From the NCBI RefSeq assembly GCF_014268595.2, contig NZ_CP077091.1, positions 5,952,501-6,016,500 of the forward strand: a DNA stretch of 64,000 nucleotides, in the 5' to 3' direction. The stretch comes from Pseudomonas hamedanensis. Its GTDB lineage: Bacteria > Pseudomonadota > Gammaproteobacteria > Pseudomonadales > Pseudomonadaceae. This document shows positions 60,566 to 64,000 of the stretch, piece by piece. The position numbers and the translations under genes are program-made. Each line of letters begins with the position of its first letter. The stretch's first letter is position 1. Below the pieces are notes generated by a model. That model saw only the letters and a program-made list of their open reading frames with translations, did no database searches and was not told where the DNA came from.

Positions 60566-60642
60566 GGGCCTATAGCTCAGTTGGTTAGAGCAGAGGACTC
60601 ATAATCCTTTGGTCCACGGTTCGAGTCCGTGTGGGCCCACCA
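60566..60642 (+). tRNA. ileX: tRNA-Ile2 (anticodon CAU, lysidine-modified)
   Basis: A 77-nt cloverleaf: acceptor GGGCCTA pairs with TGGGCCC (one G-U), D-loop AGCTCAGTTGGTTAGAGC, anticodon loop CTCATAA, T-arm GGTTCGAGTCC, encoded CCA. A CAT anticodon with this body is the minor Ile AUA tRNA, not elongator or initiator Met. Its 3' part is the attachment site of an integrated element and is repeated at 63,924. Confidence 0.93.
60598..60634. other. attL (within tRNA-Ile2)
   Basis: 37 bp from the anticodon loop to the start of the 3' acceptor strand, identical to 63924-63960. Confidence 0.88.
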
Positions 60643-60724
60643 AATTGAAAGCCGCGTATTACGTGGTTTTCGGCGTTTATGGCATTCGAAAAAGTCAGTC
60701 AGCTGGACTGCAAAAAATGCGTTC

Positions 60725-60757
60725 CGTCCAAAATTCGTCCAATTTCAATTTTGGACG
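60725..60757. promoter_or_regulatory. candidate integrase arm-type sites, left end
   Basis: CGTCCAA at 60725-60731 and 60736-60742 (11 bp apart, direct) plus an inverted TTGGACG at 60751-60757, just after the integrase stop. The same 11-bp-spaced pair occurs at the right end (63810-63827). Confidence 0.55.
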
Positions 60758-60762
60758 GACAT

Positions 60763-60985
60763 TTACCCTACCTCGGCGACCGCTGGTTTCGCCTCCAAAA
60801 GTGTGGCCAGCGGATTCAGATTGACGACCTTGGCCAAAGTCTCAGGGCTAAAGTGTGCGTACTTTTGAGTCATGGCCAACGTCGCATGCCCAAGCACCTT
60901 TGAAGCGCCAGGATGTCGCCGCCGTTCATCATGTAACGGGATGCGAAGGTGTGCCGCAAGACATGTGTCATCTGTCCATCGGCCC
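60763..60985 (-). pseudogene. tyrosine integrase, 3' remnant with frameshift
   Basis: Two frames together encode the catalytic end of a phage-type tyrosine recombinase: GQMTHVLRHTFASRYMMNGG (box with His and Arg) then LGHATLAMTQKYAHFSPETL (His and nucleophilic Tyr). A single base is missing at the A-run complementary to 60899-60901, which breaks LQ from KVLGH. Everything N-terminal of the HxLR box is absent. The protein ends about 120 bp from the tRNA. The stretch still reads open in one frame only because it is fused to an upstream small ORF. Confidence 0.88.
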
Positions 60986-61047
60986 CCCAGGCACAGGGCA
61001 GTAATCAGCATCACGATCAGCGCGAGCCGTAGCGGTGGAATCGTCAT
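60983..61047 (-). pseudogene. small membrane-protein ORF, 5' fragment fused to integrase remnant
   Basis: Begins ATG at 61047, MTIPPLRLALIVMLITALCL.., a hydrophobic helix, then runs into the integrase remnant out of its frame near 60,983. The start overlaps the stop of the preceding 42-residue ORF (ATGA), typical of compact phage operons. A deletion joining two genes explains it best. Its original function is unknown. Confidence 0.5.
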
Positions 61048-61172
61048 TTCAGACAAACCTCCACTTCAGCCAGGCGGCGGTTGTGCAGGCCTTGAACGAA
61101 GTGCTTGCGGCCCTGCGCGTCGGTCACATACGCCCACACCGCCGTCTTGCCGTCCGGTGCCTTTGCGCACAA
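61044..61172 (-). CDS. small phage-like ORF, function unknown
   Basis: 42 residues from a TTG at 61172, with a natural-looking sequence (PDGKTAVWAYVTDAQGRKHF). The stop overlaps the next ORF by ATGA, which supports real coding. There is no clear ribosome binding site and the 5' end may be truncated. I do not recognise the family. Confidence 0.4.
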   Translation of the reverse strand: MCAKAPDGKTAVWAYVTDAQGRKHFVQGLHNRRLAEVEVCLK

Positions 61173-61425
61173 TGAAAACTTAAGAAAGGAAATGAAGCGG
61201 ATCTACACAGGCGCTCACGGTCGGGTGAGTGCTATCCGTCAATCTGAATGCCACGGTTGGTGGGACCCACGGTTAAAAACACCCTCTAATACAAGTTTTC
61301 AGATTTAAAACGGTTCAAATTTCAGTGGGATTTACGAAAAGACCAGCATCTATAAATCCGCCAACGCCCCAGTGGGGCGCGGGTTGTAGGCCTGACGGAG
61401 ATTTTCATTTTTCTGTTCGAGGTAG
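61173..61425. other. AT-rich non-coding stretch in the island
   Basis: No convincing gene. It contains a CGCCCC-AGT-GGGGCG hairpin at 61365-61379 and AT-rich sequence at about 61,270-61,330, unlike the host chromosome on base composition. Confidence 0.5.
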
Positions 61426-61653
61426 GATAGGCTTTGTTTTCATTCTACGACGCGGGAGCGCTTTGGATTTTACAAAGCTTCGACATGGCAAGCGGGTAAG
61501 CGTACCCCGAGAGAAGGTCAATCAGCCTCGCCCGCGGGAGAGCGTTATGGGACGGTTGTCGGAACCCTGAGCCCAGAAGGTGTTTCGGTTCGGCTAGATG
61601 GAGAGTGCGCGACGATAATCCGGGCAATGCCGGAAGAACTCGACGATGAGTAG
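61426..61653 (+). pseudogene. 5'-truncated ORF remnant, function unknown
   Basis: Open for 75 codons without an ATG, GTG or TTG near its beginning, ending at TAG 61651-61653. The C-terminal part, GERYGTVVGTLSPEGVSVRLD, reads like a small beta-barrel (SH3/KOW-like) and ends in an acidic AMPEELDDE tail, so it appears to be a real gene end that lost its start. No family recognised. Confidence 0.35.
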
Positions 61654-61718
61654 TCAACAATCGAGGCTTTTGTTCAGCCTCCTTCATTGCGAAGAAGTGA
61701 ACAATCGGAAAGAGATCT

Positions 61719-61742
61719 AACTGGCCGCAGCTGCGGCCAGTT
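61719..61742. terminator. 24-bp perfect palindrome, likely bidirectional terminator
   Basis: AACTGGCCGCAG and its inverse, followed by TTCC on the right and preceded by AA on the left, 17 bp after the GNAT toxin stop. It fits termination of the toxin-antitoxin transcript. Confidence 0.65.
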
Positions 61743-61758
61743 TTCCGTGCACTCCCAA

Positions 61759-62277
61759 TCAGGTGAAAGGAAGCATCATCGTGATTGAGGACAGCTGCGG
61801 ACAGCGAATGAACCCTGCCTTCTCGTAAAGACCCACCAAGTTCTCATTCAGCGGATGCACAACGAGTGCGGTCGAGGCGACTTCTTCCGAGGCTGTAAGC
61901 GCACGAAGCACCGCGTCCTGAATCAGATCGAGCGACAGCCCAGTACCTTGGAGCGTCTTACATACTCCCATACGCCCCAAGATCGTGATCGGGTGCTGGT
62001 CGGGGGAGTTGCGCTGCGCCTTTTTGGGTACGACGTCTGCTCGCATGATCGTACCGTTCGACAACGTGTAGTAACCGACGACGGTATTCGTATCCTTGAT
62101 GCAAACAACAAGCACCGTGGCGGTCTTTGCGATCTGGGCCTTGATCGCTTTTTTCTTCAAGAACTCGTTGATAGAGTCCTCACCACATTCGAACGTATCC
62201 AAATCATGGGTTTCAGTCAGTTTTACTGGAGCGCTCAACTCCAGCGAGATGGCCTTTGCAGCAGTCTCTCTAAGCAT
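61759..62277 (-). CDS. GNAT-family toxin (TacT-like)
   Basis: Acetyltransferase of 172 residues; relatives (TacT, AtaT) block translation by acetylating the amino acid on charged tRNA. The acetyl-CoA loop is VCKTLQGTGLSLDLI (QGTG in place of the usual Q/RGxG), and a catalytic Tyr sits in GLYEKAGF. The N-terminal FECGEDSINEFLKKKA is typical of this toxin branch. ATG at 62277 has a strong AAGGAG. It overlaps the antitoxin end by 43 bp. Target tRNA cannot be read from sequence. Confidence 0.88.
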   Translation of the reverse strand: MLRETAAKAISLELSAPVKLTETHDLDTFECGEDSINEFLKKKAIKAQIAKTATVLVVCIKDTNTVVGYYTLSNGTIMRADVVPKKAQRNSPDQHPITILGRMGVCKTLQGTGLSLDLIQDAVLRALTASEEVASTALVVHPLNENLVGLYEKAGFIRCPQLSSITMMLPFT

Positions 62278-62543
62278 TTATTACTCCTTACGGGATTGTT
62301 CTGTAAGGCTTGTTCAAAGGCGTCGAAGTCATCGTCGGCAAGGACAAACAGGCGCTGATCAAGGATGACTTCCTCTGCCTTTTTACAAGCAGCATCCAGG
62401 ATGAAGCTGGTTCGGTCGCTTCCCGACATGGCAGCGGCCACATCGATCAAGTCTCGTTTCCTAAAATCGACCCGCATGTTGATCGGGACGGGTTTTGTTT
62501 TTTCTGCTGCTGCGGACTCCGCACGCAATAGAGATCTGGTCAT
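62235..62543 (-). CDS. DUF1778 antitoxin (TacA-like)
   Basis: Antitoxin of 102 residues. A ribbon-helix-helix N-terminal part (PINMRVDFRKRDLIDVAAAMSG) would bind DNA and autoregulate. The C-terminal FVLADDDFDAFEQAL..RLLQRPSRWS is the toxin-wrapping tail seen in this family. The ATG at 62543 is preceded by AAAGGAAAG. Upstream of and overlapping the GNAT gene, as in other tacAT loci. Confidence 0.88.
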   Translation of the reverse strand: MTRSLLRAESAAAEKTKPVPINMRVDFRKRDLIDVAAAMSGSDRTSFILDAACKKAEEVILDQRLFVLADDDFDAFEQALQNNPVRSNKCLERLLQRPSRWS

Positions 62544-62969
62544 GGTCTTTCCTTTGTTTTCACGGTTTTTTAGGTCTGGTTCACCTCAGCGATTTTCATA
62601 TTTCCGTTACTCGGCTGGTTGGACGATTCATGGCATAGCCTCACGCTTCTAGTTAGGGGACATTCCCTAAGATCTATACTGTCATCATGTGTATGAGATG
62701 TCTACACGTAACGCACATAGATACACAGCCTACGACGAGCGGTGGCCGGAGAAAGGAAGCATTGAGTAATGCGGATCGGATTGCGGGTTTTTTGGAGATG
62801 TAAGAGAAACGTGTCTCCTACCCTATGCCTTATTTTTCAACGTTCCGAGAACACTTAGGCCGTTTCATGAACTAGCTTTGAGAGTGGCCCGCGGGCCGCT
62901 AACCTGAGATGGAAGAAGGTCAGAAAAAATCTGGCTATGGCAGCGCCCTGGAGCGCGAAGGAGTGATAC
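62544..62969. other. intergenic region in the island
   Basis: Between the toxin-antitoxin operon and the membrane protein. It holds a possible 38-codon ORF (62687-62803) and a 12-bp palindrome GGCCCGCGGGCC at 62885-62896. The divergent promoters presumably lie here; I cannot place them. Confidence 0.5.
62687..62803 (+). CDS. possible 38-residue ORF, unknown
   Basis: ATG to TAA, basic and Thr/Arg-rich (TTSGGRRKEALSNADRI). No ribosome binding site stands out and no family is recognised; it may be the remnant of a regulator. Confidence 0.2.
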   Translation: MCMRCLHVTHIDTQPTTSGGRRKEALSNADRIAGFLEM

Positions 62970-63731
62970 TTGACGGCCGACCTCACTGTTCCCTTTTACC
63001 TGGACTGGAAATTTTGGTCTTTCGCCGTATCGTTCGCCGCGATAGTCCTTTCGCAAATGCCGCCGATCCACTTGCTCATTCGTCCACGTCGCTTAGATGT
63101 TGAGGTGCATAGTCGAATTCAGCTGATGCATCGAGTCGGTAACGCCAACGTAGGGCTCTTAGTGGGTATTACCAATTCGGGGGGACGCGCGCTGAGGATC
63201 AGATCGATGCGCGCTGACATAACGCGAGACGGACACCCGTTTGCCTCTTTGCCGTGCCTGTCTTACTTCGAGACCCCTTCGTCAACCTCCAGCGTCTTGT
63301 TCGTTCCGTTTTTATTACAACCCAACGAAAGCTGGTCGCACGGTGTCGGCTTTTTCAATCCGTTTGATCGACAGACGGAAAAAAACTATCGGTCTTGCAT
63401 TTCGCGTCTGAAAGCTGACATCCGTCACAAGCTGGATGCTCAACCTCCAGGAAGCAAGGAGTGGGTTGAAGCCGACCCTGATGCTGTTGCTCCATTCATG
63501 GAAATGTTCACCAAATTTTTCAATCTGGAGCCAGGCGAATACGCGGTGTCACTGACGGTTACGGCCGAACCTGGATCGGCTTCGTACTCGAAAAAATACA
63601 GGTTCACCATGTTCGAAAGCGACACCGAGGAATTACGAGCGCAGTCAGAAAGATATAAATTTGGGACGTTTATAGCGTTCGATGACCCGGAGGTAGCAAT
63701 AACCATCCCTCTTACCGAAGACACAAACTAG
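62970..63731 (+). CDS. single-pass membrane protein of unknown function (island cargo)
   Basis: 253 residues, not recognised. A TTG start at 62970 is supported by AAGGAG six bases upstream (62958-62963). One hydrophobic helix (about residues 14-36) is followed by RPRR, a positive-inside signal that would place the C-terminal domain in the cytoplasm. That domain (about 40-250) is rich in alternating hydrophobic strands (VGLLVGITNSGGRALRIRSM) and looks like a beta-sandwich, then a helical part (about 130-190) and a final strand region (YAVSLTVTAEPGSASYSKKYRF). It is intact and isolated in a decayed element beside a toxin-antitoxin pair, so it may be cargo under selection, for example phage exclusion; that is inference only. 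Confidence 0.75.
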   Translation: MTADLTVPFYLDWKFWSFAVSFAAIVLSQMPPIHLLIRPRRLDVEVHSRIQLMHRVGNANVGLLVGITNSGGRALRIRSMRADITRDGHPFASLPCLSYFETPSSTSSVLFVPFLLQPNESWSHGVGFFNPFDRQTEKNYRSCISRLKADIRHKLDAQPPGSKEWVEADPDAVAPFMEMFTKFFNLEPGEYAVSLTVTAEPGSASYSKKYRFTMFESDTEELRAQSERYKFGTFIAFDDPEVAITIPLTEDTN

Positions 63732-63809
63732 GACTCGAGATTCAGCGGTATCAAGACGGAGATCCATGTCAGTCGCAGGAAAATGCCTACCATCGACTTC
63801 TGATATGTC

Positions 63810-63827
63810 CGTCCAACATCCGTCCAA
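63810..63827. promoter_or_regulatory. candidate integrase arm-type sites, right end
   Basis: CGTCCAA at 63810-63816 and 63821-63827, direct and 11 bp apart as at the left end, about 97 bp inside attR. Confidence 0.55.
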
Positions 63828-63923
63828 AACGGGCGCAAATTTATCCTGCACATATGCACATACACGCTCCAGCAATGACGAGTTTACTGGCTTTAAGCAA
63901 TGGACCTTGGGCTTTTACTCGGG

Positions 63924-63960
63924 CTCATAATCCTTTGGTCCACGGTTCGAGTCCGTGTGG
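63924..63960. other. attR (partial tRNA-Ile2 copy)
   Basis: 37-bp exact copy of the tRNA 3' part, then CCCCCCAAA instead of GCCCACCAAA. It lacks the D-arm and 5' acceptor, so it is not a functional tRNA. It marks the chromosomal junction of the element. Confidence 0.88.
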
Positions 63961-64000
63961 CCCCCCAAACAAATAAAGGCTTATACTTGATGGCATAGGC

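What the first reader, a model, noticed from the sequence alone, without database searches (positions are those of the whole stretch)
60598..63960. Decayed tRNA-Ile2 element that kept its cargo
Seen directly: a 37-bp perfect repeat of the tRNA 3' half bounds 3.4 kb, with an integrase remnant next to the intact tRNA. Mobility genes are broken, while a toxin-antitoxin pair and a 253-residue membrane protein are intact. Selective retention of cargo after loss of mobility is a pattern often seen at defence loci.
Basis: partly seen in the sequence, partly recalled or inferred. Interest (0 to 1): 0.7.

Follow-up and report, generated by a model that had tools for sequence, protein, structure and literature searches.

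The report
Decayed prophage that kept its cargo
A 3.3-kb scar beside a tRNA gene in a Pseudomonas chromosome is what remains of a P2-like virus that once sat there; its own genes are broken, but a toxin-antitoxin pair and a rare membrane-anchored protein of unknown function, from the part of such viruses that often carries phage-defence genes, are still whole.

Summary
A 37-bp tRNA 3' half recurs perfectly 3,326 bp apart; related G019 has the empty site with one copy. The element is a collapsed phi3-like (P2-like) prophage: an integrase stub (about the last 72 of 354 codons, frameshifted) joined to an inverted lysis-gene scrap; G036 holds a 32-kb prophage at the same tRNA. Intact are a TacA/TacT-type pair and a 253-residue protein with one predicted membrane helix. 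A close copy of the latter (51 of the first 54 residues) lies at the right end of another such prophage, L083. In 80 related prophage loci that end is hypervariable (246 ORFs in 172 families; 297 structural ORFs in 12) and hits many PADLOC models. G015 shows an independent collapse with two defence-candidate genes kept. Not shown: that selection rather than position kept the cargo, or that either gene defends; neither matches PADLOC. Octamer pairs inferred to be integrase sites survive at both ends. New member of a known kind; the 253-residue family is the main lead.

The parts
60566..60642 (+). intact tRNA gene with CAT anticodon (called tRNA-Met by ARAGORN; tRNA-Ile2 by recalled likeness), the integration target
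60598..60634 (+). attL core, 37 bp, 3' half of the tRNA
60724..60758 (.). two copies of an octamer (one per strand), same spacing from the att core as in the G036 prophage; inferred integrase arm-type sites
60766..60983 (-). integrase stub, aligning to residues 282-353 of 354, with a frameshift
60990..61166 (-). fragment of the lysis region (endolysin C-terminus and start of the next gene), inverted relative to intact prophages and lying directly against the integrase stub
61424..61650 (+). frameshifted remnant of a small gene like the 70-aa ORF in the attR-side cargo slot of L118
61759..62277 (-). TacT-type GNAT toxin, 172 aa, open; one match in the genome
62235..62543 (-). TacA-type (DUF1778, ribbon-helix-helix) antitoxin, 102 aa, open, overlapping the toxin gene
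62768..63132 (+). stretch 82% identical to the right end of the phi3-like prophage contig L083 (includes the start of the 253-aa gene)
62970..63731 (+). 253-aa protein: one N-terminal membrane helix, then a beta sandwich with a helical insertion; no Pfam, NCBIfam, PHROG or PADLOC family above cut-off
63809..63827 (+). two tandem octamers 11 bp apart, 115 and 104 bp before the attR core, as in G036 (within 1 bp) and in 6 of 7 viral loci with a downstream att copy; inferred integrase arm-type sites
63924..63960 (+). attR core, perfect over 37 bp, differing from the tRNA just beyond

Best explanation
A phi3-like (P2-like) temperate phage integrated by its tyrosine integrase into the 3' half of a CAT-anticodon tRNA gene (probably tRNA-Ile2), duplicating the att core. 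Rearrangement and deletion then removed almost all of its roughly 32 kb, leaving the integrase 3' stub, an inverted scrap of the lysis genes, and the attR-side cargo slot. In that slot a small gene decayed, while a TacA/TacT-type pair and a 253-residue membrane-anchored protein stayed whole. Most likely mechanism of the survivors (inferred): TacT, a GNAT toxin held by TacA, acetylates charged tRNA and stops translation when TacA is lost, acting as an addiction or abortive-infection module; the 253-residue protein is a membrane-tethered, cytoplasm-facing accessory protein of the kind that prophages carry to exclude other phages. Shown: origin, decay and integrity. Inferred: functions, and that selection rather than position kept the cargo.
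For: att repeat, intact tRNA, empty site in G019. Integrase stub and flank about 90% identical to the G036 prophage at the same tRNA, and 87.5% to a G055 contig edge; phage phi3 carries the same tRNA piece next to its integrase. Lysis fragment matches 32-34 of the fetched loci. Copy of the 253-aa gene (51 of the first 54 residues alike) at the right end of prophage contig L083, itself 85.6% identical to the G036 prophage over 6.2 kb. That end is hypervariable and hits many defence models, against a structural-gene control. Independent parallel G015. Octamer pairs at conserved distances at both ends. TA identity. dN and dS against relatives: TacT 0.134 and 1.60, TacA 0.104 and 0.74, first 54 codons of the 253-aa gene 0.025 and 0.76.
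Against: No fetched prophage carries this TA pair in this slot: L083 lacks it in the part held, and the nearest TacAT found (G040) lies on another contig than its tRNA site, so TacAT may be a separate arrival. No own cargo protein matches PADLOC. The lysis stretch found no match among the public phage records. The dN and dS values cover phage evolution as well as time since decay. Of 9 cargo proteins tested from the 7 viral loci with a downstream att copy, 3 matched PADLOC, one of them weakly; the slot also holds non-defence cargo such as fimbrial and transporter proteins. The promoter scan found none in 60600-64000 where shuffles give 2.1, a weak test.
Confidence: 0.82

Rival explanations
1. 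Same origin, but the cargo survives because of position, not selection: genes beside attR are spared by any deletion that leaves both ends, and the remnant is simply still decaying.
For: Cargo lies beside attR here and in G015 and at the right end of L083; one small cargo gene here is already frameshifted. Recognising the element requires both ends, an ascertainment bias.
Against: Three genes (527 codons) are open while the integrase and small-gene remnants carry frameshifts; G015 likewise keeps long open cargo genes.
Confidence: 0.45
2. The pair and the 253-aa gene are not defence: TacAT is an addiction module that stabilises the element, and the 253-aa protein serves another lysogenic-conversion role.
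For: No PADLOC match; TacAT-like pairs also lie on Pseudomonas cerasi plasmids; the phage body that would profit is gone.
Against: The 253-aa family sits near AbiTii and TIR genes (L069) and an Mrr-type nuclease (L084), and in a prophage slot that hits many defence models.
Confidence: 0.35
3. A small non-autonomous element that can still move: both att cores and the octamer pairs remain, so an integrase from a related phage could excise it.
For: Perfect 37-bp cores; octamers at the same distances (within 1 bp) as in G036, and on the attR side as in 6 of 7 viral loci, L101 having one.
Against: No other genome listed has the same unit; the searches of the own genome found no spike and no intact phi3-type integrase; the attR flank has begun to drift.
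Confidence: 0.08
4. Not a prophage remnant but an unrelated integrative island that happens to carry phage-like scraps.
For: 25 of 149 genomes, own included, have two or more same-strand att copies on one contig, 1.3-79 kb apart, and only 6 of 149 have a phi3-type integrase at or near this tRNA, so other kinds of element use the site.
Against: Integrase, lysis scrap, octamers and the L083 match all belong to one phage kind.
Confidence: 0.05

Closest known systems
Pseudomonas phage phi3 (KT887559, Phitrevirus, Peduoviridae) and the G036 prophage
   Same: same tRNA target, homologous integrase, att core; G036 also shares the octamer pairs
   Different: phage genome or full-size prophage; phi3 lacks the octamers near its att (970 of 32,637 bp examined); the ORF beside its att is a group II intron maturase with HNH domain, not this cargo
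E. coli P2-like defence hotspot (Rousset et al. 2022, PMC9122126; passages and section 12 seen)
   Same: variable cargo slot in P2-like prophages that carries defence systems
   Different: there the slot lies between the replication gene A and portal gene Q; here it lies between a tail-spike-like gene and attR, and the carrier prophage is destroyed
TacA/TacT-type (GNAT-DUF1778) toxin-antitoxin systems
   Same: both proteins match a solved complex over most of their length (7f37: toxin 1.2e-32, antitoxin 1.9e-19)
   Different: activity and tRNA target untested
Collapsed prophage of G015 at the same tRNA
   Same: truncated integrase, two att copies 5.6 kb apart, attR-side cargo kept
   Different: single direct join between integrase and spike gene; different cargo (PDC-S39 and PDC-S67 models); no octamers

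Membership tests
phi3-like P2-like prophage (remnant) | integrase homologous to phi3/G036 beside the tRNA att site | tested here: met
   about 72 C-terminal codons, 82-84% identical to the G036 integrase
phi3-like P2-like prophage (remnant) | att core repeated at both ends | tested here: met
   37 bp perfect
phi3-like P2-like prophage (remnant) | P2-like structural genes (capsid, tail) | tested here: not met
   only lysis-gene scraps recognised in the element; spike search of the own genome empty (no positive control in that call); hence a remnant, not a prophage
TacAT-type toxin-antitoxin | DUF1778/TacA antitoxin directly upstream of a GNAT toxin | tested here: met
   PF08681 8.6e-21; GNAT; overlapping genes
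TacAT-type toxin-antitoxin | acetylation of aminoacyl-tRNA and neutralisation by TacA | not testable with these tools
   needs a bench assay
P2-like prophage defence hotspot | hypervariable slot of P2-like prophages that carries known defence genes | tested here: met
   for the slot, not for this cargo: 246 ORFs in 172 families against 297 structural ORFs in 12; 283 PADLOC models hit among 128 chosen cargo proteins against 2 among 32 structural ones
known anti-phage defence system (PADLOC) | own cargo protein matches a model | tested here: not met
   4 of 4 own proteins (three cargo, one integrase stub) without match at E up to 1
phage satellite | own integrase and replication/regulation module, helper dependence | tested here: not met
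   integrase broken; no replication family among the 7 ORFs scanned; helper dependence not tested

The most novel reading that the evidence does not exclude
The 253-residue family is an undescribed membrane-anchored anti-phage effector that travels in phi3-like prophage ends, other prophages and an integron; phi3-like Pseudomonas prophages carry a separate attR-side defence hotspot; and these prophages repeatedly collapse to 'integrase stub + cargo between two att sites', turning viral cargo into resident immunity that a later related phage might still move.
Probability: 0.3. Interest if true: 0.65.

Novelty: new member of a known kind. Interest (0 to 1): 0.4.

Why it matters
It catches prophage-to-resident conversion in mid-course, with a second independent case (G015) at the same tRNA, a full-size relative (G036) and an empty site (G019) for comparison. 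The attR-side slot of these prophages is a large, mostly unnamed pool of cargo that includes many candidate defence genes, and the 253-residue protein is a compact, testable member that no family library used here names.

Tried and rejected

Limits: PADLOC results for the 128 cargo proteins come as counts per model, not per protein; many of the models hit overlap (AAA-ATPases), so 283 models is not 283 systems. The 128 were picked by hand from 211 representatives, longer ones first, and leave out some of 190 aa or more. The control had 32 representatives of 297 structural ORFs, fewer and less diverse. The 80 viral loci are the best 80 of 427, and not all reach attR: 7 have an att copy downstream. 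G001 also has a phi3-type integrase, near its second att copy rather than at the tRNA; it is not in my count of six.

Full report
What was checked. The window lies at 5952501-6016500 of a complete 6,045,338-bp genome; that it is Pseudomonas is inferred from named relatives and phages. A 37-bp piece of the tRNA 3' half at 60598-60634 recurs perfectly at 63924-63960, and a genome-wide pattern search finds only these two copies. The tRNA at 60566-60642 is intact; ARAGORN calls it Met by its CAT anticodon. I read it as Ile2 by recalled likeness only.

The site is a landing place. In G019 the left match ends and the right match begins at a single att copy: an empty site. The distance from the tRNA to the downstream Lrp-type gene could be estimated in 111 of 149 genomes searched: 21 under 1.2 kb, 24 from 1.2 to 3 kb, 34 from 3 to 8 kb, 32 of 8 kb or more, up to 60.6 kb; own 4,354 bp. 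The att pattern occurs in 116 of 149 genomes; two or more same-strand copies lie on one contig in 25 of 149, own included, 1.3 to 79 kb apart. Contents differ: a HamB-like helicase in G003, a methyltransferase in G120, and a cytosine methylase with a methyl-directed restriction enzyme in G081.

What the element was. The first 340 bp inside the tRNA are about 90% identical to the left end of a 32-kb att-bounded prophage in G036 at the same tRNA. The integrase stub aligns to residues 282-353 of 354, in two frames. Next to it, within 8 bp, is a scrap of the lysis region (173 alignment columns, 8 mismatches and one gap against L112), inverted relative to G036 and matching 32-34 of the fetched loci. 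Public phage records did not match it. Phage phi3 (Peduoviridae, Phitrevirus) carries the same tRNA piece next to its integrase. A phi3-type integrase reaches E 1e-20 in 21 of 149 genomes; it lies within about 1.3 kb of this tRNA in 6 of 149: about full length in G036, G055 (contig edge) and G116; truncated in own, G015 and G031.

Both ends survive. An octamer found four times in the window lies only at the two ends of the element: one per strand 126 and 153 bp from the start of the left att core, and two in tandem 115 and 104 bp before the right one. G036 has the same arrangement within 1 bp, plus one copy inside. Of seven viral loci with a downstream att copy, six have the tandem pair and one has a single copy. 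phi3 lacks them near its att, and G015 has none. I infer integrase arm-type sites.

The cargo. TacA (102 aa) and TacT (172 aa) are open and match a solved TA complex. TacT has one match in this genome. The 253-residue protein has relatives in 5 of 398 genus genomes including own, 12 loci of genome contigs, 3 of viral contigs and 1 plasmid record; these overlap (L072 is G336, L081 is G222) and L070 and L071 look alike. Some are broken or short: G222/L081 has a stop, and L077 and L080 have ORFs of 181 and 165 aa. Contexts include an integron integrase (L073), AbiTii and TIR genes (L069), an Mrr-type nuclease (L084) and other viral contigs; several neighbours tested had no family. The model (mean pLDDT 86.4) shows a helix at 13-29, then a beta sandwich with a helical insertion. 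Basic residues after the helix suggest that the domain faces the cytoplasm (inference).

Where the cargo comes from. Contig L083 is the right end of a prophage 85.6% identical to that of G036 over 6.2 kb, and it stops inside a copy of the 253-aa gene (51 of the first 54 residues alike; DNA 82% over 365 bp). It contains no att copy, so the place of the gene between the tail-spike-like gene and attR is read from gene order and from own. In 80 such loci (best 80 of 427) the stretch after the spike gene holds 246 ORFs of 120 aa or more in 172 families, whereas 297 upstream ORFs of 190 aa or more fall into 12. At E up to 1e-8, 283 PADLOC models were hit among 128 chosen cargo proteins, including AriA in 9, AbiLi in 7 and PtuA-type in 7 members; among 32 structural representatives 2 models were hit, 1 member each. 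The slot also holds fimbrial, antirepressor and transporter proteins. Of 9 cargo proteins from the seven loci with an att copy, 3 matched PADLOC. The frameshifted small gene at 61424-61650 resembles a 70-aa gene in the same slot of L118.

An independent parallel. In G015, at the same tRNA, integrase residues 75-342 abut spike residues 96-323 on the opposite strand, so the phage body is gone. Between two att copies 5.6 kb apart remain a 609-aa gene (PDC-S39 model, 2.6e-108), a 208-aa gene without match and a 208-aa gene (PDC-S67 model, 3.2e-42). That 'PDC' means phage-defence candidate is recalled.

How it most likely works. Integration, collapse, survival of the cargo. The TA pair would act by translation arrest when TacA is lost (recalled for TacT-type toxins; inferred here). 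The 253-aa protein would act at the inner membrane against incoming phages (inferred from location and family context only). Whether selection kept them is open: they sit beside attR, and detection needs both ends. Differences from relatives are mostly synonymous, but that comparison spans time before the collapse.

Known or new. P2-like prophages with defence hotspots are known (PMC9122126, passages and section 12 seen); there the E. coli slot lies between genes A and Q, and a Vibrionaceae one between repressor and integrase. An attR-side slot of phi3-like phages was not found in the passages and listings seen. I file the element as a new member of a known kind.

Noticed in passing
L173 (G015:C1:446900-453000): Second collapsed phi3-like prophage at the same tRNA: integrase joined to a tail-spike gene, with PDC-S39 and PDC-S67 genes kept between two att copies.
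   Followed up: partly
L053 (G031:C11:681000-688200): Truncated phi3-type integrase beside the same tRNA with a 297-aa gene without PADLOC match next to it; the att pattern was not found in G031 at up to 3 mismatches.
   Followed up: partly
L083, L090-L168, region after the tail-spike gene: Hypervariable cargo slot of phi3-like prophages, 172 families among 246 ORFs.
   Followed up: partly
L073:8422-10744: The 254-aa homologue lies beside an integron integrase (TIGR02249, 1.2e-111), so the family may also travel as a cassette; attC sites not examined.
   Followed up: no
L040:8524-11324: G036 prophage has two similar 317/318-aa ORFs in its cargo slot, with repeated pieces of the spike gene near them.
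   Followed up: no
window 61719-61742: 24-bp palindrome between the small-gene remnant and the end of TacT; terminator-like on the minus strand, but such sites are as many as chance gives in this region.
   Followed up: no
L175, L176, L178, L181: Four other species carry a similar-looking 250-270-aa ORF in att-bounded elements at this tRNA (judged by eye, not compared).
   Followed up: no
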